A stretch of DNA of 64,000 nt from Emticicia sp. C21 (GTDB taxonomy: Bacteria > Bacteroidota > Bacteroidia > Cytophagales > Spirosomataceae). Within the stretch, counting starts at the first letter, position 1, and the number at the start of each line of letters is the position of its first letter. Shown here piece by piece: positions 254-52,252 of the stretch. The notes beneath the pieces are model-generated. The model did no database searches. It saw only the letters and a program-made list of their open reading frames with translations, and was not told the origin of the DNA. A program made the position numbers and the translations under genes. The stretch covers positions 124,001 to 188,000 of the forward strand of contig NZ_QVMT01000010.1 in the NCBI RefSeq assembly GCF_003418935.1, read 5' to 3'.

Positions 254-2500
254 GTGGAAACAATCGAACAACTTCCTACTTTCGAAACAGCCAAAAAACT
301 TGGCTTATTGCCCGAAGAATTTGACAAAATCAAACAAATCTTAGGACGCACTCCCAACTTTACTGAATTATCTATATTTTCAGTTATGTGGTCGGAGCAC
401 TGCTCATACAAAAATTCTATTGTATGGCTAAAAACATTACCACGTGATTCGGACCGGATGCTGGCAAAAGCGGGTGAAGAGAACGCAGGTTTGGTTGATA
501 TTGGTGATGGTCTGGCATGTAGCTTTAAGATAGAATCACATAATCACCCATCAGCATTGGAGCCTTACCAAGGTGCGGCTACGGGAGTTGGTGGTATTAA
601 CCGTGATATTTTTACCATGGGGGCACGCCCTATTGCGCAGCTTAACTCGCTTCGTTTCGGCAATATTAATTCGCCAAAAACCCAACGTTTGTTGAAAGGT
701 GTGGTAAAAGGAATCGGTGATTATGGCAATGCTTTTGGTATTCCGACAGTAGGTGGAGAAATCTATTTCGATGATTGCTACAATACTAACCCATTGGTTA
801 ATGCTTTTTCGGCAGGAATCGTTGAAGTAGGTAAACAAGCTTCGGCTACTTCTTACGGTGTAGGTAACCCGGTATTTATTGTGGGTTCGGCTACAGGTAA
901 AGATGGTATCCACGGAGCAACTTTTGCTTCTGAAGATATTACCGATAAATCTACAGAAAAACTTCCGGCTGTTCAGGTTGGTGATCCTTTCATGGAAAAA
1001 CTATTATTGGAAGCTACCTTAGAAATTCTTGGTAGCGGATATGTGATTGGTATACAGGATATGGGTGCAGCTGGTATTATTTGCTCTACTTCTGAAATGA
1101 GTGCCAAGGGTGAACACGGGATGATTATAGATTTGGATAAAGTACCAACTCGCCAGGCAAATATGCATGGTTGGGAGATTTTACTCTCAGAATCTCAAGA
1201 AAGGATGTTGGTAGTTGTGCAAAAAGGTAAAGAAGATTTAATTAAAGGTATATTTGATAAATGGGATTTACATTGTGCGCAAATTGGTGAAGTGACCGAT
1301 ACGCAAAGACTTCACTTCTATCAACATGGAAAACTAATTGCTGATGTTCCGGCAGAAGATTTAGTTTTAGGAGGTGGCGCTCCGCAATATCACCGTGAAT
1401 ATCGTGAACCTGCTTATTATCAGGAATTTAAAAAGTTTGATATTAATGCGGTAGCTGATATTAATGGTGCAGCTGAATTGAAAAAAGTAGCTGAGCATTT
1501 ATTGTCTCACCCAAATATCTGTTCTCGTAAATGGATTACAGAACAATATGATTCAACTGTGGGTACTGCTAACCGTAGTACTAACCGTCCATCTGATGCA
1601 GCAGTAGTGAGATTGAGAAACCCTGAAAAAGGAGATTTGAATAAAGCGATTGTTATTACGGTTGATTGTAATGGAAGATACGTAAATGCTGACCCGGAAG
1701 TTGGTTGTCAGATTGCCGTATCGGAAGCTGCTCGTAATATTGTGTGTACCGGTGGCGAGCCATTGGCTATTACGAATAACCTGAATTTTGGTAACCCATA
1801 TAATCCGGAAGTATACTGGCAATTTGTGGGTGCGGTAAAAGGCATGAGTAAAGCTTGTGTAAAATTCAGCACTCCGGTAACTGGTGGTAATGTGAGTTTC
1901 TATAACCAAAGTTCGGATGATGGCCCGGTATTCCCGACTCCTACTATTGGTATGTTAGGGTTACTGGAAAATACTGAAAACCAAATGACTCTGAATTTCA
2001 AAAATGCAGGAGATTTAATTTATCTGGTTGGTGAATCGAAAGATGATATTGCTTCTTCGGAATACTTGTATTCGTACCGTGATGTAAAAGCCTCTCCAGC
2101 CCCTGCGTTTGATTTGGATATGGAGTTTAATGTACAGGAATCTATTAAAGAAATGATTCAAAATAAATTGGTAGAGTCGGTACATGATATTTCGGATGGT
2201 GGTCTTTTCATTACTTTAGCTGAATCTTCTTTTACTAATGGATTAGGCTTTAATATCAAGACTGATGGTAAGTTAAGAACTGATGCTTTCTTATTTGGCG
2301 AAGCTCAAAGCAGAGTGGTAGTTTCTGTAAACAATTCGCAAAAGGATTCGATTGAAAATTTATTACGAAGCAAAAATGTAAGCTTCACTTTATTAGGTGA
2401 GGTAAATGATGGAAGCTTTATAGTAGACGGCGAAACAGTGATCACTACTAAATCGGCCAAAAATCTCTACGATAATGTGATAGGAAGAATCATGAATTAA
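254..2500 (+). CDS. purL: Phosphoribosylformylglycinamidine synthase subunit PurL (small form)
   Basis: Catalyses the ATP-dependent amidation of FGAR to FGAM in de novo purine synthesis. At 748 aa it is the small PurL type, which in known systems works with separate PurQ glutaminase and PurS; neither is in this window. The family's catalytic histidine motif SEHCSYK is visible (His49), as are SHNHPSALEPYQGAATGVGG, the HDISDGG motif near residue 640 and GGGAPQYHREY near 375. Two AIRS-like halves span the protein. The start is GTG, about 20 nt after a plausible transcription start, and the N-terminus METIEQLPTF fits the family. purK and purE lie 16 kb away and are not in the same operon. Confidence 0.95.
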   Translation: METIEQLPTFETAKKLGLLPEEFDKIKQILGRTPNFTELSIFSVMWSEHCSYKNSIVWLKTLPRDSDRMLAKAGEENAGLVDIGDGLACSFKIESHNHPSALEPYQGAATGVGGINRDIFTMGARPIAQLNSLRFGNINSPKTQRLLKGVVKGIGDYGNAFGIPTVGGEIYFDDCYNTNPLVNAFSAGIVEVGKQASATSYGVGNPVFIVGSATGKDGIHGATFASEDITDKSTEKLPAVQVGDPFMEKLLLEATLEILGSGYVIGIQDMGAAGIICSTSEMSAKGEHGMIIDLDKVPTRQANMHGWEILLSESQERMLVVVQKGKEDLIKGIFDKWDLHCAQIGEVTDTQRLHFYQHGKLIADVPAEDLVLGGGAPQYHREYREPAYYQEFKKFDINAVADINGAAELKKVAEHLLSHPNICSRKWITEQYDSTVGTANRSTNRPSDAAVVRLRNPEKGDLNKAIVITVDCNGRYVNADPEVGCQIAVSEAARNIVCTGGEPLAITNNLNFGNPYNPEVYWQFVGAVKGMSKACVKFSTPVTGGNVSFYNQSSDDGPVFPTPTIGMLGLLENTENQMTLNFKNAGDLIYLVGESKDDIASSEYLYSYRDVKASPAPAFDLDMEFNVQESIKEMIQNKLVESVHDISDGGLFITLAESSFTNGLGFNIKTDGKLRTDAFLFGEAQSRVVVSVNNSQKDSIENLLRSKNVSFTLLGEVNDGSFIVDGETVITTKSAKNLYDNVIGRIMN

Positions 2501-2525
2501 GATTAATCAGATTCATATAAATGAT

Positions 2526-2557
2526 AAAGACCTCTTAGTGGAGGTCTTTATTTTTTT
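2526..2557. terminator. Bidirectional terminator between purL and methyltransferase
   Basis: Perfect 9-bp stem AAAGACCTC (2526-2534) / GAGGTCTTT (2541-2549) with a 6-nt loop, followed by a T-run on the + strand. It overlaps the last codons of the convergent methyltransferase gene. It ends purL and can also act on the opposite strand. Confidence 0.8.
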
Positions 2558-3312
2558 GTCATTACCAAAAAGAGGGAACTTCCAAAACCACCATTCCGAA
2601 AAATCTTCTCTTCCAGTTTTACAATTCTGTATAAAGTCGTATTCACAAAATTGCCGGGTACACTTACATCAGATTTTATTTCTGTTCTATTAATTAGATT
2701 GAATTTTAATTGAAATTGTTGAAGTAGTCTTACTGATAAGATCAAAGGTGATAAGAATAAACTCCAATAGGAATGGCTTTGGAGTTTTAATCCGGTTTGG
2801 CTGAGGTATTTTTCAAAATCACTTTTGGTGAATCTTTGTAAACCACCTACAGCAATATCATGTGTACCATAAAAGACATTGAAGGCATTATTATTAGAAA
2901 TTAGAATTCCGTTTGGCTTTAATTTTTTCTCTAAATTTTTTATAGCTTTTACGATAATTTTATCTTCAAATTGATACAATACGTCGTCATTGATAATAAC
3001 ATCAAAAGAGGCATCAATAAATTCACAATCAAAATTAGTCAAGTCAATTTGCTGAACTTTGAGTTTTCGCTCTTTACAGAAGCTCACGGCATCTTCCGAA
3101 AAATCAAAGCCTTCAATATCTTTATATCCTTGCTGAATTAAAAAATTCATCAAGCCTCCTGTGCCACAGCCAGCATCCAGAATTTTTATATATTTATTCT
3201 GTCCAAATTTGGCAGTAATCTCTTTCAGAATTTTCTCGTGTAGAATCTTATACCACCAAAGTTTTTCTTCAGAGTCATACATCATCTGGTATTCTTCTCT
3301 ACTACTTAGCAT
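2548..3312 (-). CDS. Class I SAM-dependent methyltransferase
   Basis: 254-aa soluble protein with a Rossmann SAM-binding fold. Motif I, ILDAGCGTGG, is near residue 43, followed by an acidic residue at the end of strand 2 (EGFDFS) and a DVIINDDVLYQF post-motif. The substrate cannot be told from sequence. It is the last gene of a leftward set: its start overlaps the stop of the GT2 gene by 11 nt, suggesting translational coupling. The two genes before it encode a sugar aminotransferase and a membrane-anchored glycosyltransferase, so methylation of a surface sugar or lipid-linked glycan is a reasonable inference. A small-molecule O- or N-methyltransferase is the alternative. Confidence 0.8.
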   Translation of the reverse strand: MLSSREEYQMMYDSEEKLWWYKILHEKILKEITAKFGQNKYIKILDAGCGTGGLMNFLIQQGYKDIEGFDFSEDAVSFCKERKLKVQQIDLTNFDCEFIDASFDVIINDDVLYQFEDKIIVKAIKNLEKKLKPNGILISNNNAFNVFYGTHDIAVGGLQRFTKSDFEKYLSQTGLKLQSHSYWSLFLSPLILSVRLLQQFQLKFNLINRTEIKSDVSVPGNFVNTTLYRIVKLEEKIFRNGGFGSSLFLVMTKK

Positions 3313-4201
3313 GAGTGGAGTTATATTTTTCTACGAACTGAGGGGTTTCGTTTTGGGTTAAAAATAATTTACCTACGTACTCACCTATAATACCAAGCGC
3401 ACTTAACTGGATACCACCAAAAAAAATAAACATTGGTATTTGCCAATCAGGAATAAGTTTTATAAGGTATAGAAATGTTAGTATTAAGGATAAAAAAATC
3501 AGGAATATGCCCGTTCCTTGTATAAAGCGAATTGGTAAAGTTGAGTAACCAAATATAATGATGATGAAAAGTCGTACTAATTTTTTTATGGTATAATTTG
3601 AATCTCCTTCCATTCTCTCATTATGCTCAACCTGTACTTTACCGACATTGTTGGTATTCCTGAAAATTAAGGCATCGATATATGGATATGGTCCCTTATA
3701 CTTAATAATTTCAGAAATAACCTCTTTATTGATTAGCTTAAAACTTGATAGATATAAGTCACTAGGTTTATGGATAAGCCAAGTAGTAACTCTATTCACG
3801 ACCCAGCTACCCAGATTTCTGAAAAAATGATGTTTTTTGTCAGCATAGTAACTATATACTACATCGTAATTTCCGGTTTGTGCAGTATTAAGCAATTTAA
3901 TTATTTCTGAGGGTGGGTTCTGGAAATCGTCATCAATGATTACCGCGTATTTCCCACCTACATAATTGAGACCGCAAATGACCGCATTAAATTCTCCGAA
4001 ATTTTTGCGAAGTGAGATAAACTGAAGATTTTTATATTTTTCGTTGAGATTTAAGCAAACTTTTTCAGAGTTATCGGGGCTACCATCATTTACCAGTATT
4101 ATCTCAAAGTCATATTTCTTTAACTCATCTTGTAGCTTTTCTACAAGTTTCTCAATTGTTTTTTCTCCTCTATAAACTGGTATAACTACAGATAAGAGCA
4201 T
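3302..4201 (-). CDS. Family 2 glycosyltransferase, polyprenyl-phosphate type (GtrB/DPM1-like)
   Basis: 299 aa from the start chosen here. The N-terminal GT-A domain begins LLSVVIPVYRGEKTIEKLV and carries the nucleotide-sugar motif VNDGSPDNS and the metal-binding IDDDFQNPP. Two hydrophobic helices in the last ~80 residues (about 225-280) match the membrane anchor of the GtrB/ArnC/DPM1 group. These enzymes transfer a sugar from a nucleotide donor to a polyprenyl phosphate at the cytoplasmic membrane. A frame extends ten codons upstream to 4231, but that would overlap the aminotransferase stop; the ATG at 4201 gives the usual family N-terminus and a 7-nt gap. The neighbouring aminotransferase and methyltransferase suggest synthesis or decoration of a surface glycan. 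Confidence 0.85.
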   Translation of the reverse strand: MLLSVVIPVYRGEKTIEKLVEKLQDELKKYDFEIILVNDGSPDNSEKVCLNLNEKYKNLQFISLRKNFGEFNAVICGLNYVGGKYAVIIDDDFQNPPSEIIKLLNTAQTGNYDVVYSYYADKKHHFFRNLGSWVVNRVTTWLIHKPSDLYLSSFKLINKEVISEIIKYKGPYPYIDALIFRNTNNVGKVQVEHNERMEGDSNYTIKKLVRLFIIIIFGYSTLPIRFIQGTGIFLIFLSLILTFLYLIKLIPDWQIPMFIFFGGIQLSALGIIGEYVGKLFLTQNETPQFVEKYNSTHAK

Positions 4202-5334: not shown

Positions 5335-8253
5335 TTATCTTCCGCAAATCCCTTTAAAATCGCATCTTTCACAAATCACAAGATTGTTTGTCTGAACAAA
5401 CGGAATTTCAGGATTTAGCATTTCCTTTATTAAATCGGCTAAAATTTGTTCTGATTTTTCTATAAAACCAAAGATAGTTGGGTTATCATTAAAACTCAAA
5501 TTTACCTCTAAATTTTCTTTCATATTTCTGAAAGAATAGATTTTTGCCTTTACTTCATGATTTTCTAAACGTTCTCCTCCTAACAAAAAGCTTTTATCTT
5601 GCGTAATACTCTTCAGCATCAGGTATTGATAAAGCCATAACTGCCGAAGTTTCTCTTTGTCGGGGTCAATTAAGGCTTCTTCTAAAATCTGTTCTTTCGA
5701 TTTTTCAAGCTCTTTCTTCCCTACTCTTCCAGTTTTATAGTCAATTACTTTAATTGTATTACCCTCTTTTTCTATTCTATCAACACGTCCTGCAATTTTC
5801 ACTTTTTGTACTTTTCCAAGAACAGACACATCAAACATAACCTTAACTTCGCGTTCTGTTTCTAAAACATGATAAGGGAAAACCTGGCTTTCTTTTTGCT
5901 GTTTGAAAAAATCTTCCAATAATTGTTCAGCCACTTGCTTTAGCAGATAATTCATGCCTGAATCAATTACATATCCTCCAAATTGTTCAAGATATGCAGT
6001 TTCTAATCTTTTTGGTATTTCACTTACAATCGAATCTATTAATTCTTTTGTAATCATCGGGCCATGGTCAATGTCTATCCTTTCTAAAGTATTGTGCAAC
6101 CATGTCCCAAAAATATCTGCACCAAACTTTTCATCTACTTCTTCCCGCTTTGAAATATTCGCAACTTTATTGAAGTAGAATTTCATGGTACAATGCAGGT
6201 ATTCATTCAAATATGTTGGATAAATACCATTACCTGAAATTAGCTGGCTAATATCTGTTAAAATATCCGATGTTTTATGAATTTCGATCCTATTAACCAC
6301 TTCTATATCACTACTTTTTGCATACTTGATCTTAGGATAAGAAATTTTTATATTTTTATTCTCTTTAGCAAGTTCGTTTTCTATCTGCAAAATAAATCGA
6401 CTCTTTTCTGTTGCTCCACCTCCAACTCCTTCTCCGGTCGGGATTACATACAATAAATCAATGTCTTTTGCTCTCTGCAATAATCTAAAAAAATGATACG
6501 ACATAATAGCATTCTGGTCTGATTGAACGGGTAGACCAAACTCTATCGATGCATCAAAAGGAATCAGAGAGTTTAGATGTCTGGTTGATGGAAGAATGCC
6601 CTCATTGACAGACAGAAAGATAACCTTTTCAAAATCAAGACAACGAGTTTCAAGCATACCCATAATTTGCAGATTTGCAATGGGCTCTCCGCTAAATGGA
6701 ATTTTCTCTTGCTTGATTAATTCATACAAGAAATGTTTGAAGCTTTTAATATTTAATTGGCGATTAGCAAATAGGATTTTTTCAAGGCGATTTAAAATCG
6801 TCAGAAATAAATATAGATACTCGGTCTCGATAGCATCTTTGGTTTCGCGGTAGATACTTCGGAGCTCATCGATTAAATTATAGAATGCTTGTAAGGTTTT
6901 TTTGGGATTATCACCCCACCGAGTGAAAAGGATTTTAAAAAGTTTATCTCCGTTACCAAAAGCCAACATTTCTTCCTCACTGAGATAAACAATGTTTCCT
7001 TGAATAATTTTCCTTAAGCTTTCACGAAAAATATTTGGTTTATTATGGTCTTCCTGATTAATATAATTCATCTGCTCATACTTTCGGCAGAATGGATGAT
7101 TAAGTACTTTGAAAATATGCCTATGACTATACTTTGAGATTTTTACCTTTTCGCCTGACTTATCCTTAAATTCAACAACATTTTGTTGCAACTCAAAAAT
7201 GGCATCAATTAATGTAAACAGCATTGAGCCTCGTAATGATAAGCCCATTGTAATATTGAAATCGGATACAATATTATCAAGCGAGTACATGAGTGGGTAA
7301 AGCAGATTCTCATCACATAAAACTATGGCAGTAGGTACATTCGGGTTTTCGGCTAATAGCTCAGCATAAATAGCTCCGGCTACTTTTGTTTGTAAGGTAG
7401 AATTTTCAACGCCTATAATTCTGACATTTTTCTGTTCGGTCAATAAGCCATTTGTTTGCCAGTTCCATTTACCGAATTTCCCACCGGCTTTATATTTTCT
7501 TAATAGGTTGCCCCCTTTATGATTAAATTTCGGACTCATGAAATAATCATCACAGTCCCAAAGCATTTCTGCAAGATTAGCCTTTATTAATTTTTCAATT
7601 ACTTTTTCTTCTGATTTACTGAAAGCATTGAAGCCAATAAAATAGAACTTTTCAAATATCTGATTTTCAAGTAAAAGTGTGTCTACTTCTTCGGCTAAAA
7701 GTCTATAAGACATCCCTCGATAAGAGTATCCTTTTATACGCAACTCATTATGGAGATCATTGTAGACATTATAAATATTTTCAAAAAGTTTAAAATATCT
7801 ATCTGTGCTAGATGTACTTTCAATAATTGGTTTATTAATTGAAGTTAACTCCAGGTTCCACCGTGCTATAGTTTGAGCTTCGCTGATATAATCAAACAAA
7901 GTCTTTGGGTCACCAAGCAGATACTGGTCTATAGTGTCAAAATCTCTTAACAATGTCGGAGCCCAAGAAATAAACCTATCGAAATCTACTTTAGAATCAT
8001 ATTTGCGGAATGTTTCGTATAGCTCAAATAGCAACCCTACAGAATCAATCTGGTTAAAGCCCGACATCTTGGCAACAAAATCGTCAATAGCAAAAACTTG
8101 AGGAGCCAAAAAAGGCACTTTTGAAACCTGAGCTAAATATCTCTTGAAATAATAAACAGCTCTTCGGTTAGGCAGAATGACACAAATGTTTTTCAGTTGT
8201 GCCAAAGAATGTTTGTCAAAAACGTAACGAGCCGATTGTTCCAGAAATACCAT
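5335..8253 (-). CDS. AddB-like PD-(D/E)XK nuclease / inactivated-helicase protein
   Basis: 972-aa protein resembling AddB/RecB-family exonucleases. The N-terminal part ([19 protein letters not shown]) is a degenerate UvrD-like helicase half without a clear Walker A. The C-terminal nuclease domain has the core motif VIDYKTGRV following VDRI, the usual PD-(D/E)XK arrangement. A cysteine in [10 protein letters not shown] and a terminal [10 protein letters not shown] cluster match the four-cysteine iron-sulfur staple of AddB nucleases. AddB normally pairs with AddA in double-strand-break processing; no addA is in this window. The start at 8253 ([15 protein letters not shown]) is preferred to the upstream ATG at 8274. 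It heads the operon and its stop abuts the aminotransferase start by 1 nt. Confidence 0.82.
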
Positions 8254-44167: not shown

Positions 44168-45049
44168 TTAAAAATCGCCATAATTTACTTGTAGACAAGG
44201 TAAACCTAAATCTAAGCGCCACAAATCAACTACCTGGTTACGGTCGTCTAATACAAACCTTACATAATATTTCCCTTTCACGTATTTTTCATAGAGTTCT
44301 TTTTTTACTATTGAATCTTTACGTGAATCTCCAGTAGCACGCATATACAGTGCATCGTAAGTAATATTGTTGCATTCTAGCCAATTAATGGTTTGTTTTC
44401 GGGCTTTCTCTTCACGACCAGACATAAAGATTACTTTTGTACCTAGTTTATGATAAGTCTGCACAATATCCGCAATTGGTTTATTCAATAAATCGGTTTC
44501 GCAACGCTCCGCATCATACGGGCTTCTTGCATGTAAAATAGCCAGAGTACCGTCTAAGTCACATAGAATAGCTGGTGCAAGACTCTCGTCTTGCTTCTGA
44601 TAATGCGGCCCTCGTTCATTTTTTAAAACATGTTGTCTATACATTTTCATAATCACCTCCCTTCCTACTTTGTTCTCTCTTACTTCATCTCTAGCCAATG
44701 ATTCTTCTAACGAAGTCATCATATCTTTAACTTCTATCCTCACCTCCTCGCCTGTATCTTTTCTATATTGCTCAACTACCTGAGCAATACGTTCAACAGG
44801 TCGGTCTGATAAGTTGGTATCATCAATTACTACATGGTGCCCTGCTTTCAAGGCTTCTACCAACATCATATCACGCACTCTTTCTACAAATTTCTCATTA
44901 TGTGTAGTATGATGAGAATTATCCAGCATCGCACGTAACTCGTCTTTATTCAGACGCTTCCACATACGTCTTTTATCTTCTATCAGGTTTCTGGCAAAAG
45001 TAGATTTCCCGCTTGCAGGTAATCCACGTAATATTAACACGGTTTTCAT
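44168..45049 (-). CDS. T4 Pnkp-type polynucleotide kinase / 3'-phosphatase
   Basis: 293 aa with the same domain order and length as phage T4 PseT/Pnkp. The N-terminal P-loop kinase has GLPASGKST and the NKDELR motif that in T4 supplies the Asp/Arg for the 5'-OH acceptor. The C-terminal acylphosphatase (HAD/DxD) domain has CDLDGTLA, FMSGREEKAR and VLDDRNQVVDLW, matching the T4 phosphatase catalytic residues. It should phosphorylate 5'-OH and remove 3'-phosphate or 2',3'-cyclic phosphate ends, preparing broken RNA for ligation. It lies four genes downstream of an Rnl1-type ligase on the same strand. It is the last gene of the cassette. Confidence 0.9.
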   Translation of the reverse strand: MKTVLILRGLPASGKSTFARNLIEDKRRMWKRLNKDELRAMLDNSHHTTHNEKFVERVRDMMLVEALKAGHHVVIDDTNLSDRPVERIAQVVEQYRKDTGEEVRIEVKDMMTSLEESLARDEVRENKVGREVIMKMYRQHVLKNERGPHYQKQDESLAPAILCDLDGTLAILHARSPYDAERCETDLLNKPIADIVQTYHKLGTKVIFMSGREEKARKQTINWLECNNITYDALYMRATGDSRKDSIVKKELYEKYVKGKYYVRFVLDDRNQVVDLWRLDLGLPCLQVNYGDF

Positions 45050-46062: not shown

Positions 46063-46542
46063 TCAACCTAAATTTTCAATACTCCATTCGATTCCTTTTA
46101 GTAAGCCATTCTTAGAAATATCCCAACTCTGATTATCACTTTGTTTCCAATCGCTATCAATAAATTCGGGTTGCTGGATTTTATAACTCATGCCCCAGCC
46201 ATAATGCTTATGACTATAAACTATTGATACTCTATATAAAGTAGACTTACTTTTGATAAATTTCTCTAATTTAATAGCGCTTACATATTCGTCAGATAAA
46301 TCAAATACCAAATATGTTTTATCAAGATTCAAATTAACTAAGTTTATTAAATGCTCCAAATACGCCTTAAAACATTCTTTTTTCCATTCAATCTCATCTT
46401 CAATAGTTGATTCGAATTCTAAAAAATCAGGAATAAAATAGAAGTCTGCAATCCAAGGTGCATTTGTGCCTATACCAACATCTATTTTTAGGAATGTATC
46501 CTGATGTGAATTACCAAAGGAGTCGAATATAAATCTTACCAT
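46063..46542 (-). CDS. Unknown protein in RNA-repair cassette
   Basis: 159 aa, acidic, no signal peptide or membrane helix. I recognise no family. Beta-strand-like stretches (WIADFYFIPDFLEF, TYLVFDLSDEYVSAI, YRVSIVYSHKHYGWGMSY) alternate with a helix (ECFKAYLEHLINLVNLNL). The histidine/tyrosine-rich SHKHYGWGMSY is the most distinctive segment. It lies between the nucleotidyltransferase and NadR-like genes (gaps 36 and 7 nt), so co-expression is likely. Confidence 0.65.
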   Translation of the reverse strand: MVRFIFDSFGNSHQDTFLKIDVGIGTNAPWIADFYFIPDFLEFESTIEDEIEWKKECFKAYLEHLINLVNLNLDKTYLVFDLSDEYVSAIKLEKFIKSKSTLYRVSIVYSHKHYGWGMSYKIQQPEFIDSDWKQSDNQSWDISKNGLLKGIEWSIENLG

Positions 46543-46578: not shown

Positions 46579-47610
46579 TCACATTACTTCCCGTCTTACT
46601 TTGAGTAACAATTCATTCACAAAGTCATTATCCACTTCCTTAGGCAAGTCGCTTTTTTCAAATAATTCATTCAGTTCCAAAATCTCTTCTTCTGCTTTTT
46701 GCATAAAAGCCGCTAAATCGATTTCTCCTCTTCTGATTTTAAGTAATTCCTGAGCATTTGGTCGTCTGACATTAATGGTTTTCTGAGTAGCAATTTCAAT
46801 AGCCATATCCAGTAATCGTCGACAATGCAAAAGGTTTTTGCCATCAATTTGTTGCTGATGATTAGTTATATCTACATAGCGTTGCACATTTCTATTTTTC
46901 AGCCATGTTTCATACTCTACATAATCTTTACAGTGGGATGAATATCCCTCCTGATTAAAACACATGATGCTAACCGGTTTTTCTCCTTTCGGTACAGAAC
47001 TAAGCTTAACATCATTACCTTTTTCCGAAACAATTCCCTTATAACCCAATTCGTCTGTACCGTCATAATATAACGCATAACAATTTTTGAAGTGGTTCAA
47101 GGCTACCAAGCCACATTTATCTGCCGACCAATTATTTCTTTCCAGGAAATACAAAAGAGGCATTGTTTTACCTTCTTCATAGACATAACAAAAGTCAAAT
47201 GGTGTTTTTCTGGTAATTTTATCATGCTCCCAGTTCATTTTCTTTTCCAGCCCCTTGGCTTTACTGATTTGCGCAATGGCGTATCCCCCGAAAGACTGCA
47301 GACATTTTCTGGTTAAAAAATGAGCCCGATTTTCGATAATAATATCAAAGGCAGGGTGTTTTTCGATAATGCACTCCGGTGGCATATACAATAACTCCAG
47401 CATAGTTGGATTTGCCGATTGAAGCAATTGCAAAAACCGTCGGACTTCAAAATAACATTCGTCTTTTGATACCTCAATCTGCTCTTTATAGGTAAACCCT
47501 ATAAGATCTTCTACTGATTGGGAGTAAACTCCTTTATAATCTATATCCGAATTAGTCGTGTTTGTTCCGTATGCCTGGCTACCTACAATAGCCTTTAATA
47601 ATATTTTCAT
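46579..47610 (-). CDS. Predicted nucleotidyltransferase (COG3541 / YcgL-like, pol-beta fold)
   Basis: 343 aa. The N-terminus AIVGSQAYGTNTTNSDIDYK contains the pol-beta-superfamily GS motif (Gly10-Ser11) and the metal-binding D-x-D (Asp22, Asp24). The remainder matches what I recall of the COG3541 group of stand-alone nucleotidyltransferases, including MLELLYMPPECII and a C-terminal RRPNAQELLKIRRGEID. The substrate of these proteins is not established; end-addition to RNA is an attractive guess here. Its ATG overlaps the stop of the RNA ligase gene (ATGA, 47607-47610), a strong sign of coupling. Confidence 0.82.
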   Translation of the reverse strand: MKILLKAIVGSQAYGTNTTNSDIDYKGVYSQSVEDLIGFTYKEQIEVSKDECYFEVRRFLQLLQSANPTMLELLYMPPECIIEKHPAFDIIIENRAHFLTRKCLQSFGGYAIAQISKAKGLEKKMNWEHDKITRKTPFDFCYVYEEGKTMPLLYFLERNNWSADKCGLVALNHFKNCYALYYDGTDELGYKGIVSEKGNDVKLSSVPKGEKPVSIMCFNQEGYSSHCKDYVEYETWLKNRNVQRYVDITNHQQQIDGKNLLHCRRLLDMAIEIATQKTINVRRPNAQELLKIRRGEIDLAAFMQKAEEEILELNELFEKSDLPKEVDNDFVNELLLKVRREVM

Positions 47611-48657: not shown

Positions 48658-48688
48658 TATCACTACGCAGTATATTTGCGTAGTGATA
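48658..48688. promoter_or_regulatory. Perfect 12-bp dyad, predicted WYL-regulator operator 1
   Basis: TATCACTACGCA (48658-48669) and its exact complement TGCGTAGTGATA (48677-48688), spacer GTATATT. It lies 31 bp before the RNA ligase ATG and 19 bp after the stop of the RING/TerD gene. The core CTACGCAGTATATTTGCGTA is nearly the same as the site at 51156-51176. A hairpin with no T-run on the gene's strand is a poor terminator, so operator is preferred. Confidence 0.65.
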
Positions 48689-48707: not shown

Positions 48708-50948
48708 TTAGTCAACCAATAACTGGGTAACTTTCGCAGAGTCAATGGCCCATTTTTTATCATACACCTCATCTGCATCAGGTGTATCAACCCGTTCCAG
48801 CTTTTGCGCTTCGGCTTTTAATAATAACAGGTCTCCAATATTCAGTTTGCTGCTTAATTTATTTATCAAAGCCTGAACTCCTTTGTAGTCCAATCCTTGC
48901 ACGACCTCACCACTGAATGTCATTTCCAGCCACATAATCTCACGATTTTCAACATCCAAAACTCCAAATACCAATCCTTTAGCCAGATTTTGTGTTACTC
49001 TCACCTGGTGCTGTACGCAGGAAGGATCATAGGCAACTCCTGTCGTTTCTGATATATGCATCGGATATTTACTATCCATCCAACCTACTACTAAGTTAGG
49101 ACTAATATTTCCATAGGTATAAGCATTACATGTAAAACTTACATATTTTGCTTTTGCCTTTGATAGGGCATCCAAGTCTATTTCAATATACTCGGCTGCA
49201 CCTATCTGATCCGGAATAGATTGTATATCTCCGCTATGCATACATCCGGTAGCCACTAAGTTGCTATATGAACAATACTCTGTTTTTGAAGCATAAGCAA
49301 TATTACAGCTTAAATCCATATCCAGGTGTTGTGCAGGCATATCTTTTCCCCACTGCATGAATAGTCTTATACTATTCCCTTCAACCGGAAATCTGGTTCC
49401 CATTAATGCCACAGGTAAATCCTGAATGGTCTGACTTCTATCTCCTATAGCAACTGGCATATTAAAAAGCTGTTCGTCAATAAATATTGTTTTATTATTA
49501 TTTAGAACAGCTGTAAATCTCTTTTTCACAGCTAACAAACAAAGTTCTTCAATATTGTTTTGCATGCTCTCCAATTGTGTCTTACTGTATATTTTCAATA
49601 AAGGGTTTGGAGCTATTCTTTTATTGATTCCGCCCAATGGTCTTACACTTCTTTGAATATTTGTTTCAAAATAATTTTTTGCATACATATTCAATGTAAA
49701 TACCAGGCGAGCCGGTACTTTATCTATAACCTGCGAAAATTCTGCTACTGCCTGCTCAGGTCCAAACCAAAGCATGTTGGCAAATAATGAACGGGCAAAT
49801 AAACCAGGTCTTTGCTTCAACAGTCCAAAGGTCTTTTCGGTATCACATTTTAATCTATAATTGTTAACATTTCCTTGCCAAACATTATACAATTGATTAT
49901 AAAAAACATCCAGCAGTTCTGCCAATTTCTCAAATCCTTTTTTCTTGCTATACTCTGGCAAACGAAGTGCTCTGATAAATCTCACCCACATACCTCTTTT
50001 AGGGTGCATCATCTCGCATATCTTTTCAATATCGAGTTCTAAATTATTAAGCCAGGTCGCAACCATCAGACATTCTGCTCTTGTATACTTCAGTTTGATT
50101 TGAAGTTTCGCTTCTAAAATTGTCGTACCTCCTCCATTCAGGAAAATAAATTTGTTGCTCGGCGGAACTACCTTTTTAACAAAGTTCTTAGGCTCAATAA
50201 TTTGTAAGAAGCCTGTTTTCTTGTACCATAAATATCTAAGAATATCAGTAGGCGATGATAAATACAATTGTGCTTTATCAGACTGATTTTGTTCAATTAA
50301 AGTATCTATTACAACTACCAGTGTTTCCTTCATACTGATGGTTGTTTTTGGCAAAGGAAGATATTTTAATAGCATTTTTAAACTATCAATCTGAGTAGCA
50401 TCAAGAGCAGTTTTAGCCTGTAAAAGCGATAAAAAATATTGAGTAAGGTCCTCATCAGTCCATAATTCCAATACTTTCAATTTGGAAGTTTGTCCATAGC
50501 GCTCAATATTACCAAATACAAAGGGTTTCCCACAGAAAGGGCAACCATTGTATCTCTCCAAAGGGAAAGTATTTTCAGGTATAATATGTCCACATTGTAA
50601 AGTCTTTACTGGGTCGTTTCTAAGAACCTTAATATTGGCAAGCCAGGTAACCAAATGGTCAAATCTGGTTTCACCTGTTGGTATTGACCAGTTTCTAACT
50701 AATGGAGTCCAGTTATTAGTACTTCCCAATACACTATCCAAAGTTTTGAGAATCTCAATTTTGTATCGATAACTGGCATTATTAAGGGCTTTTAACAAAG
50801 GTTCAGAAAAACTAAACCCGTTTTTAGCAACATTTTCTACAAATGTAAATGTTGCACCTGTTAATAACTCGTTTTCTTTAACAATTGCCTCGTTAGGTAC
50901 ATAAATAGCATTTTGTCTTAAGCTGATTTTTAGTAAATCCTGTTTCAT
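48708..50948 (-). CDS. RING-finger / TerD-like protein (MXAN_6230/SCO0854-like)
   Basis: 746 aa from ATG 50948 (KQDLLKISLRQNAIYVPN). A treble-clef zinc site of RING type is visible near residues 138-165: LQCGHIIPENTFPLE followed by GCPFCGKPF. A long helical middle follows (about 170-500). The C-terminal part (about 520-690) looks TerD-like: LDMDLSCNIAYASK, GCMHSGDIQSIP, AAEYIEIDLDAL and SPNLVVGWMDS. I associate this layout with the MXAN_6230/SCO0854 RING proteins found near tellurite-type (Ter) systems, from memory only. Role unknown; possibly a scaffold or sensor. It has its own structured leader and is divergent from the WYL regulator. Confidence 0.7.
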   Translation of the reverse strand: MKQDLLKISLRQNAIYVPNEAIVKENELLTGATFTFVENVAKNGFSFSEPLLKALNNASYRYKIEILKTLDSVLGSTNNWTPLVRNWSIPTGETRFDHLVTWLANIKVLRNDPVKTLQCGHIIPENTFPLERYNGCPFCGKPFVFGNIERYGQTSKLKVLELWTDEDLTQYFLSLLQAKTALDATQIDSLKMLLKYLPLPKTTISMKETLVVVIDTLIEQNQSDKAQLYLSSPTDILRYLWYKKTGFLQIIEPKNFVKKVVPPSNKFIFLNGGGTTILEAKLQIKLKYTRAECLMVATWLNNLELDIEKICEMMHPKRGMWVRFIRALRLPEYSKKKGFEKLAELLDVFYNQLYNVWQGNVNNYRLKCDTEKTFGLLKQRPGLFARSLFANMLWFGPEQAVAEFSQVIDKVPARLVFTLNMYAKNYFETNIQRSVRPLGGINKRIAPNPLLKIYSKTQLESMQNNIEELCLLAVKKRFTAVLNNNKTIFIDEQLFNMPVAIGDRSQTIQDLPVALMGTRFPVEGNSIRLFMQWGKDMPAQHLDMDLSCNIAYASKTEYCSYSNLVATGCMHSGDIQSIPDQIGAAEYIEIDLDALSKAKAKYVSFTCNAYTYGNISPNLVVGWMDSKYPMHISETTGVAYDPSCVQHQVRVTQNLAKGLVFGVLDVENREIMWLEMTFSGEVVQGLDYKGVQALINKLSSKLNIGDLLLLKAEAQKLERVDTPDADEVYDKKWAIDSAKVTQLLVD

Positions 50949-50954
50949 TTTTTT

Positions 50955-51013
50955 AAAAGATAATTGTGTTTCTGAAGTCTGGAAAAGGATTGAAGTAAGA
51001 AACACTTGACCTT
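50955..51013 (-). ncRNA. Structured leader element, copy 1
   Basis: A ~59-nt element directly before the RING/TerD ATG. On the leftward strand it runs AAGGTCAAGT... to AATTATCTTTT. Its 8-bp stem is GTGTTTCT (50966-50973 on +) with AGAAACAC (50998-51005), enclosing 24 nt. Outer and loop sequences match copy 2, while the inner six stem positions differ and are compensated. The strand is assigned by its place in the leader; no direct evidence of transcription. Confidence 0.6.
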
Positions 51014-51037
51014 AAATTTTTAAAAGCTAAAATTTCA

Positions 51038-51101
51038 AAAAGATAATTGTAAAAGTGATAATGAACTTGGAAGGTTATTGAAGTAACTTTTACTTGACCT
51101 T
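51038..51101 (-). ncRNA. Structured leader element, copy 2
   Basis: A ~64-nt element homologous to copy 1. The stem is GTAAAAGT (51049-51056 on +) with ACTTTTAC (51086-51093), enclosing 29 nt, with a possible inner 4-bp stem ATAA/TTAT. Flanks AAAAGATAATT and ACTTGACCTT are identical to copy 1. A leftward GATATTTG (51104-51111, one mismatch to the -7 consensus) sits just before it, so a transcript could begin at this element. Confidence 0.6.
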
Positions 51102-51155
51102 TTCAAATATCAAATCTGCTTCTAAGCGAATTGATGAAACAAAATAAGCGGGCTA

Positions 51156-51176
51156 TTACGCAGTCTATTTGCGCAG
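51156..51176. promoter_or_regulatory. Predicted WYL-regulator operator 2
   Basis: TTACGCAGTCTATTTGCGCA plus G matches the core of the dyad at 48658-48688 at 18 of 21 positions and keeps the ACGCA-N7-TGCG symmetry. It lies 44 bp before the WYL ATG and upstream of the RING/TerD leader. TCTATTTG inside it resembles a rightward -7 box. Confidence 0.6.
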
Positions 51177-51220
51177 ATAAAAATATTTTCATTTTTTTGT
51201 AAAATATTTTTCTAAACACT

Positions 51221-52252
51221 ATGCCTGCAAATAGAAACGCCCTTGTGCGCTATAAAACAATTGATGCCTGTTTAAGAAACAGAAAACGAAAATGGACTCT
51301 GGAAGACCTGGTCGAAAAAGTCTCTGATACGCTTTATGAATACGAAGGTATTGATAAAGGAATTAGTGTGCGAACCATTCAGGCAGACATCCAGATGATG
51401 CGAAGTGATAAACTGGGCTACTTTGCGCCAATCATTGTGATTGATAAAAAATACTATACCTACGAAGATCCTAAATACAGTATTACTAATATTCCTATTT
51501 CCAATGCTGACTTAGGAAGAATGAATGAAGCAGTTGAATTATTGAAACAATTCAAAGGCTTTTCGCATTTCAATCAGTTAAATGAGGTGGTACAGAAACT
51601 GGAAGACCATGTATATGCTACTGCCCATAAGCAACATACGGTTATTAATTTCGAAAAAAATGAAAATCTGAAAGGTTTATCCTATCTGGATTTACTGTAT
51701 CATTCTATCATACAAAAGAAAGCGGTTAAAATGACCTATCAATCATTTAAGGCTCATGAAGCGAATACATTTACTTTCCATGTATGGTGGTTGAAAGAGT
51801 TTAAAAACCGATGGTTTGCAGTAGGTGTCAGAGGTGGGCAAAAAATTGTTAACAATCTAGCTTTAGACCGGATTCAGGATTTAAGTCTCGATGAAACAAT
51901 GGATTATGTCGAAAATGAGGTATATGACTCTGAAAGTTATTATAGAGATATAATTGGAGTAACAGTATCTTCAGGCTTGCAGGCAGAAGAAATTACTTTA
52001 TTCGTAACAAAAGAAGAAGCGCCTTATATGGAAACCAAGCCCCTGCATCACACGCAAAGAATTTTAGAAAGAAATGAGGAAGGTATAATTTTACAGATTA
52101 AAGTACAGATAAACTTTGAATTAGAAAGAGAGATTCTGGGATCTGCTGATAGAATGCAGGTGATTTCCCCGGAAGCATTAAAAAAGAGGATTTACGCTCG
52201 TCTTCACAAAGGAACGCAGAACTATGAAAGAATTCAACTAGTTCAAAGCTAA
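51221..52252 (+). CDS. WYL-domain transcriptional regulator
   Basis: 343 aa. An N-terminal winged helix-turn-helix (about 8-75: RYKTIDACLRNRKRKWTLED, SVRTIQADIQMMRSD) is followed by a WYL domain (about 150-235: LLYHSIIQKKAVKMTYQSF, then FHVWWLKEFKNRWFAVGVR) and a C-terminal WCX-like region (about 250-343: EEITLFVTKEEAPYMETKPL). WYL regulators such as BrxR/CapW and PafBC control stress and phage-defence genes, some sensing nucleic-acid ligands. It is divergent from the RING/TerD gene and probably autoregulated through operator 2. Its last 15 nt overlap the convergent lipoprotein gene. Confidence 0.9.
   Translation: MPANRNALVRYKTIDACLRNRKRKWTLEDLVEKVSDTLYEYEGIDKGISVRTIQADIQMMRSDKLGYFAPIIVIDKKYYTYEDPKYSITNIPISNADLGRMNEAVELLKQFKGFSHFNQLNEVVQKLEDHVYATAHKQHTVINFEKNENLKGLSYLDLLYHSIIQKKAVKMTYQSFKAHEANTFTFHVWWLKEFKNRWFAVGVRGGQKIVNNLALDRIQDLSLDETMDYVENEVYDSESYYRDIIGVTVSSGLQAEEITLFVTKEEAPYMETKPLHHTQRILERNEEGIILQIKVQINFELEREILGSADRMQVISPEALKKRIYARLHKGTQNYERIQLVQS

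What the first reader, a model, noticed from the sequence alone, without database searches (positions are those of the whole stretch)
50955..51101. Two tandem leader elements with covarying 8-bp stems
Copies at 50955-51013 and 51038-51101 share AAAAGATAATT and ACTTGACCTT ends and a TATTGAAGT/GATTGAAGT loop segment. The stems are GTGTTTCT/AGAAACAC in one and GTAAAAGT/ACTTTTAC in the other: five of the six inner pairs are different and all are compensated. This is strong internal evidence for selection on pairing, not on sequence. Reading leftward, copy 1 ends 6 nt before the RING/TerD start codon and copy 2 follows a -7-like GATATTTG. It could be a regulatory leader or a small RNA that the repair enzymes act on or are sensed by, in the way Y RNAs accompany Ro/RtcB loci.
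Basis: seen in the sequence. Interest (0 to 1): 0.85.

Follow-up and report, generated by a model that had tools for sequence, protein, structure and literature searches.

The report
Y-RNA-like hairpins beside RNA-repair genes
The two hairpins are real and belong to an uncatalogued family of small RNAs, related to the tRNA-mimicking Y RNAs, that sits next to one uncharacterised RING/TerD gene in bacteria of several phyla and in large phages, and probably serves as that protein's RNA partner in RNA repair.

Summary
Each copy is GGU-CAA-[8 bp]-UACUUC-loop-[8 bp']-AAUU-AYC.

All 28 Bacteroidota RING/TerD loci examined carry 1-9 such elements upstream of the gene. Helix ends vary freely but pair: 93% of cells, 125 double changes against 36.5 after shuffling. 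A covariance model gives strong hits only in the 8 of 294 genomes that carry the gene. Related elements (GGCYNNN-stem-UCCUUCU...UUUCC) flank RING/TerD homologues in Actinomycetota, Bacillota, Pseudomonadota, Deinococcota and jumbo phages: 21 hits in 26.6 kb of flank against 4 in 292.6 kb elsewhere.

Many relatives carry tRNA-like modules, in tRNA order (anticodon arm replaced by the 8-bp helix) or in the permuted order of YrlA Y RNAs. Y RNAs at the same genome's Rsr/TROVE locus share the stem-UACUUC element. A Rhodococcus phage element combines the RING-type base with a YrlA-type tRNA domain.

Best reading: a TROVE-independent branch of Y-RNA-like RNAs, acting in trans as partner or scaffold of the RING-helical-TerD protein in RNA repair. 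It is not in Rfam. Function is inferred.

The parts
51039..51102 (-).
   Evidence: sequence; minus-strand fold; model R1 69.8 bits (in training set); matches the recurrent first-element type of relatives
50956..51014 (-).
   Evidence: R1 60.6 bits (in training set); helix GTGTTTCT/AGAAACAC recurs in the last element of many relatives
48708..50948 (-). RING - alpha-helical - TerD protein gene, the gene shared by all element-bearing loci; presumed RNA partner
   Evidence: Prok-RING_4 weak in all 14 homologues; TerD fold at C-terminus, Foldseek prob 1.00 to 2qng/2qz7; NCBIfam NF041916 133 bits, below cut-off 600
51157..51175 (.). Operator-like palindrome TGCGCA-N7-TGCGTA between the divergent WYL gene and the elements
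   Evidence: 4 matches on two strands = 2 sites, 0.30 expected; found upstream of the first element in 14 of 26 loci
48664..48682 (.). Second copy of the operator-like palindrome, upstream of the RNA ligase gene
51221..52252 (+). Divergent WYL/WCX-domain regulator
   Evidence: Pfam PF13280, PF25583
47607..48626 (-). T4 Rnl1-type RNA ligase
   Evidence: Pfam PF09511, E 2e-18
46579..47610 (-). RlaP, RNA-repair polymerase-beta nucleotidyltransferase
   Evidence: Pfam PF10127, E 4e-19
44168..45049 (-). PNKP-type kinase-phosphatase
   Evidence: Pfam PF25109, E 6e-51

Best explanation
The two hairpins are small structured RNAs transcribed from the WYL-regulated promoter at the head of an RNA-repair operon, on the same strand as the RING-helical-TerD gene. 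They are members of a Y-RNA-like family in which a basal asymmetric internal loop (GGU-CAA / NAUU-AYC), an exactly 8-bp helix and an adjacent UACUUC strand form a fixed platform. Shown: structure, family, strand, and linkage to the RING/TerD gene. Inferred: the RING-helical-TerD protein binds the basal platform as Rsr/Ro60 binds Y RNAs; the apical part (a complete tRNA-like domain in many relatives, short anticodon-loop-like loops in the window) docks repair or decay enzymes or presents tRNA-like ends; so the RNA acts in trans as scaffold or gate of an RNA-repair particle. The window carries a minimal two-RNA version that lacks the tRNA-like middle elements. Autoregulation by protein binding to its own leader may be an added function.
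For: Helix covariation, unbiased by partner choice and on the full alignment. Strong model hits in exactly the 8 of 294 sampled genomes with the full-length gene, and clustered motif hits in exactly the 5 of 201 family genomes with the gene. The same element kind flanks the gene in other phyla and in phages, on the same strand, upstream or downstream. tRNA-like modules score 41-61 bits with the Rfam tRNA model, with an insertion in the anticodon arm. The tRNA-like RNA of one genome, with the insertion left out, matches that genome's tRNA-Lys(UUU) best outside the array. TROVE-locus Y RNAs of the same genome and of other genomes share stem-UACUUC, with YrlA matches at several of those loci. The Weasels2 element joins a RING-type base to a YrlA tRNA domain. 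Neighbours are RNA ligases (Rnl1, RtcB or Rnl2), RlaP and Pnkp.
Against: No expression or binding data. The helical domain of the RING/TerD protein shows no detectable relation to TROVE (Pfam E <= 1, hhalign prob 0.2%, no Ro60 structure among the 50 best Foldseek matches), although the model is of moderate confidence. The window copies themselves lack T- and D-arms. The last element sits 10 nt from the start codon, as a cis element would.
Confidence: 0.6

Rival explanations
1. Cis-acting leader: the hairpins are read only as part of the RING/TerD mRNA, and a protein (RING/TerD itself or a repair enzyme) bound there controls translation or decay of the operon.
For: In Bacteroidota the elements lie upstream of the gene and the last one ends close to the start codon; the operator and promoter lie upstream of the first element.
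Against: In Niallia, Vibrio, Variovorax, Streptomyces L068/L075 and phages L073/L077 the elements lie downstream of the gene. Arrays of up to 9 elements with whole tRNA-like domains are more than a leader needs.
Confidence: 0.17
2. Bait or decoy: the tRNA-like and anticodon-loop-like parts are sacrificial substrates for tRNA anticodon nucleases, or sensor substrates whose cleavage and religation reports damage.
For: tRNA-like elements carry Lys-UUU, Glu-UUC, Gly-UCC, Asn, Arg-UCU and Pro-like anticodon loops, and neighbours are tRNA-repair enzymes.
Against: Several elements, including the window's, have no complete anticodon arm. The invariant parts are the basal loop, the 8-bp helix and UACUUC, not the anticodon loop. 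Salmonella YrlA, with a tRNA-like domain, was not cut by the induced anticodon nuclease (PMC7790460, read).
Confidence: 0.13
3. Split or intron-bearing tRNA genes: the tRNA-order elements are spliced to working tRNAs by the operon's ligase.
For: Leaving out the insertion gives a plausible tRNA-Lys with an intact anticodon stem.
Against: Most elements (all in the window) are hairpins with no tRNA exons. The insertion point varies and in some cases both halves keep parts of the anticodon loop. The same module occurs as a free-standing hairpin.
Confidence: 0.04

Closest known systems
Bacterial Y RNA (YrlA, Rfam RF02553; Deinococcus Y RNA RF01053) with Rsr/Ro60
   Same: Basal stem with asymmetric internal loop; helix directly followed by UACUUC in TROVE-locus RNAs of Bacteroidota and Rhodococcus; tRNA-like domain with T-arm and D-arm in relatives; encoded with RNA-repair genes, tRNAs or RtcR
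   Different: Basal loop is GGUCAA/NAUUAYC (GGCYNNN/NNUUUCC elsewhere), not the GUGCCGUA/UUUUUGCC base of the local TROVE RNAs; partner gene is RING-helical-TerD; window elements have no tRNA-like domain; arrays of up to 9; some in tRNA order rather than permuted; no RF02553 match in the Bacteroidota RING loci searched
tRNA-like ncRNA reported with SPFH/Band-7 RNA-repair operons (Burroughs and Aravind 2016; recalled from memory, paper not held)
   Same: tRNA-like RNA next to RNA-repair genes
   Different: No SPFH/Band-7 protein among the domains found here; could not be compared in sequence
MXAN_6230/SCO0854 RING domain family (NCBIfam NF041916)
   Same: Same kind of protein as the window's RING/TerD protein; its other-phylum members also carry flanking hairpins
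   Different: Window protein scores 133 bits against a cut-off of 600; no function or RNA partner found in the held literature

Membership tests
Bacterial Y RNA (YrlA type) | Match to the Rfam YrlA model | tested here: not met
   No match in window 50900-51200 up to E 10 nor in Bacteroidota RING arrays; TROVE-locus RNAs do match at E 2e-12 to 1e-4. One phage RING-locus RNA matches the tRNA domain
Bacterial Y RNA (YrlA type) | Encoded beside and bound by a TROVE/Rsr protein | tested here: not met
   No TROVE match to the local RING protein; the genome's TROVE gene is on another contig. Binding not testable
Bacterial Y RNA (YrlA type) | Rsr-binding basal consensus (GNCGAA-like, recalled from memory; GUGCCGUA in the local TROVE RNAs) | tested here: not met
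   Window copies have GGUCAA/AAUUAUC; local TROVE RNAs have GUGCCGUA/UUUUUGCC
Bacterial Y RNA (YrlA type) | Helix followed directly by UACUUC, as in TROVE-locus RNAs | tested here: met
   (Bacteroidota and Rhodococcus TROVE loci; Rhizobium and Pseudomonas have ACUACA instead)
Bacterial Y RNA (YrlA type) | tRNA-like domain with T-, D- and acceptor arms | tested here: inconclusive
   Absent in the two window copies; present in many relatives, in tRNA order or permuted order
RING-TerD-linked RNA family (defined here) | GGUCAA-N8-UACUUC ... N8'-NAUUAYC with N8 paired to N8', beside a RING-helical-TerD gene | tested here: met
tRNA gene with intron or split tRNA | tRNA exons flanking the insertion | tested here: not met
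   ARAGORN finds no tRNA in the element region of the window; only some elements of relatives have exon-like flanks
Any Rfam family | Gathering-score match | tested here: not met
   Only a distant tRNA-Ser in the whole window; only tRNA and tmRNA models match in the other RING loci

The most novel reading that the evidence does not exclude
A second class of Y-RNA ribonucleoprotein exists in which the RING-helical-TerD (MXAN_6230/SCO0854-like) protein replaces Rsr/Ro60. Its RNAs are spread over at least five bacterial phyla and several jumbo phages, and occur in both circular permutations of one tRNA-helix fold.
Probability: 0.55. Interest if true: 0.92.

Novelty: new variant of a known kind. 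Interest (0 to 1): 0.85.

Why it matters
It gives an uncharacterised, widespread RING/TerD protein family a specific candidate RNA partner and hence a testable role in RNA repair. It suggests that Y-RNA-type particles are not tied to Ro60, and links the TerD (tellurite/stress) domain to tRNA damage. The tRNA-order and YrlA-order forms are natural circular permutants of one fold and show how tRNA mimics evolve. The same pairs in jumbo phages point to a use in phage-host conflict over tRNAs.

Tried and rejected
TROVE ancestry of the helical domain: Pfam to E 1, hhalign against a TROVE alignment, and Foldseek of two models were all negative. Known Rfam families: none. Self-cleaving ribozyme: considered because of the two strand orders with a fixed core; no match to a known class, and the Y-RNA relation explains the two orders better. 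DNA operator instead of RNA: rejected because a separate conserved palindrome is present and the elements of relatives hold T-arms and anticodon loops. IMG/VR viral contigs: no confirmed relative of the protein alignment. Four weak model hits in other genomes (26-31 bits): three overlap coding sequence (L121-L123), the fourth (L124) lies near an ORF boundary; none is beside a RING/TerD gene. The key Y RNA papers and Burroughs and Aravind 2016 are not held, so the published YrlA consensus and any earlier mention of this pairing could not be checked.

Full report
WHAT IS THERE. The two copies lie between the start of a RING-helical-TerD gene (48708-50948, minus) and a divergent WYL regulator (51221-52252, plus). 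Read on the minus strand, the strand of the RING/TerD gene, each is GGUCAA - 8 nt - UACUUC - loop - 8 nt complementary - AAUUAUC. GGU pairs with AUC across a 3/4-nt internal loop (CAA/AAUU). Minimum-energy folding of the minus strand gives this structure for copy 2 (outer stem, 3/4 internal loop, 8-bp stem) and for copy 1; the plus strand of copy 2 does not give it. The genes downstream are an Rnl1-type RNA ligase, RlaP, a protein without Pfam match, a NadR-like AAA protein and a PNKP phosphatase-kinase: an RNA-repair operon.

RELATIVES. RING/TerD homologues are rare: 5 of 201 genomes of the family, 13 loci from GTDB contigs, 7 full-length in Flavobacterium-like genomes of a 297-genome phylum sample and three on Bacteroidota plasmid records. 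All 28 Bacteroidota loci, the window included, carry at least one element immediately upstream, most of them several. The helix length is 8 bp throughout. The first and last elements of the arrays are recurrent types; the window has only these two, without the middle, tRNA-like elements.

IS THE PAIRING REAL. To avoid choosing partners by complementarity, strand B was taken as the first ATTAYC after each strand A. 52 of 61 had at least 7 of 8 pairs, against a mean of 8.3 and a maximum of 17 in 10,000 reassignments; sliding by 1-3 nt drops the mean from 7.3 to 3.0-4.0. On 42 aligned hairpins 93.3% of cells pair (66.8% after shuffling), 125 cells have double changes (36.5), and the covariation score is 0.688 (0.190); all eight inner pairs show double changes. 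Partners in that alignment were picked partly by complementarity, so one search is the cleaner test. A covariance model (R1) found elements in five loci outside its training set, beside the RING gene, at E <= 1.1e-5 (L058, L017, L018, L059, L060). In 294 genomes it gave strong hits only in the eight with the full-length gene; four weak hits elsewhere are not beside the gene, and three overlap coding sequence.

OTHER PHYLA AND PHAGES. The protein is distantly related to the MXAN_6230/SCO0854 family. Beside such genes in Streptomyces, Kitasatospora, Embleya, Niallia, Vibrio, Variovorax, Deinococcus and phages XacN1, Weasels2 and others are hairpins of the kind GGCYNNN-stem-U[C/A]CUUCU-loop-stem'-NNUUUCC, or CACC in Weasels2. 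A strict search finds 21 in 26.6 kb of same-strand flank, 4 in the remaining 292.6 kb, and 0.25 expected from shuffles; 12 of 19 loci have one. They lie upstream in some and downstream in others, on the gene's strand. This argues for a trans-acting RNA rather than a leader. The definition was derived from some of the same loci, so the enrichment is descriptive.

tRNA-LIKE FORMS AND THE Y RNA LINK. In many Bacteroidota arrays the two strands occur in reverse order inside a tRNA-like RNA with intact acceptor, D- and T-arms, the helix sitting in the anticodon arm. The Rfam tRNA model scores these at 41-61 bits. In one genome the Lys-like RNA, with the insertion left out, best matches, outside the array, that genome's tRNA-Lys(UUU) at 82%. 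Other elements carry a T-arm, often with a class-II-like variable arm, in the loop. The window's own genome has a TROVE/Rsr gene on another contig among tRNA genes. Between those tRNAs are RNAs with stem-UACUUCG and tRNA-like loops, some in permuted order, but with another base, GUGCCGUA/UUUUUGCC. TROVE loci of other Bacteroidota and of Rhodococcus show the same stem-UACUUC. Rfam YrlA matches RNAs at these TROVE loci but none in the Bacteroidota RING arrays searched. Phage Weasels2, which has a RING/TerD homologue and no annotated TROVE gene in the stretch read, has one RNA with the RING-type base, helix GATTAACT/AGTTAATC, UACUUCG and a YrlA-type T-arm/acceptor/D-arm domain (E 5e-4 in a 161-base search, 0.14 in a broad one). 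The YrlA order and the tRNA order are circular permutations of one fold: a tRNA whose anticodon arm is the 8-bp helix.

HOW IT MOST LIKELY WORKS. Shown: conserved RNA structure, strand, gene linkage. Inferred: the RING-helical-TerD protein, the only gene common to all loci, binds the basal loop and helix. The apical part docks partner enzymes, by analogy with Y RNA that tethers Rsr to PNPase through its tRNA-like domain (PMC8394870, PMC4726728). A TGCGYA-N7-TGCGYA palindrome at 51157-51175 and again upstream of the ligase gene (48664-48682) is the probable operator of the WYL regulator; it lies upstream of the first element in 14 of 26 loci, which suggests that the elements are within the transcript.

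MEMBERSHIP AND NOVELTY. It works like a Y RNA but is not filed as YrlA: the Rfam model, the TROVE partner and the Rsr-type base were tested and not met. It is absent from Rfam 15, and the held literature that was searched does not mention the pairing. The 2016 RNA-repair survey and the YrlA papers could not be read, so an earlier mention is possible.

Noticed in passing
L112 = G000:C6:52500-60500 (same genome, outside the window): A TROVE/Rsr gene inside a cluster of 13 tRNA genes, with about five YrlA-like RNAs between the tRNAs, at least two in permuted tRNA order; a separate RNA-repair island.
   Followed up: partly
window 51157-51175 and 48664-48682: Palindrome TGCGYA-N7-TGCGYA at the divergent WYL promoter and before the RNA ligase gene; conserved in relatives, probably the WYL operator.
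   Followed up: partly
L071 1881-2297 and L078 1687-1993 (Rhodobacter phage RcXuper, Ruegeria phage RpAliso): Phages with a RING/TerD homologue, UACUUC hairpins, many tRNAs and a permuted tmRNA close together.
   Followed up: no
L010 2244-3400 (Tenacibaculum sp. M341): Three near-identical elements, each preceded by the same upstream sequence: tandem duplication of promoter plus element.
   Followed up: no
window 46063-46542 minus: 159-aa protein of the RNA-repair operon without any Pfam match.
   Followed up: no
L008, L009, L010 and other RING/TerD loci: The ligase of the operon is exchanged freely (Rnl1, RtcB, Rnl2; Hen1 and Pnkp pieces in L009) while RING/TerD and the RNAs stay.
   Followed up: partly
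L061 (Variovorax plasmid) 1936-3588: RING/TerD homologue next to RtcR, the regulator of rtcBA-rsr operons; two covarying hairpins at 7530-7680 downstream.
   Followed up: partly
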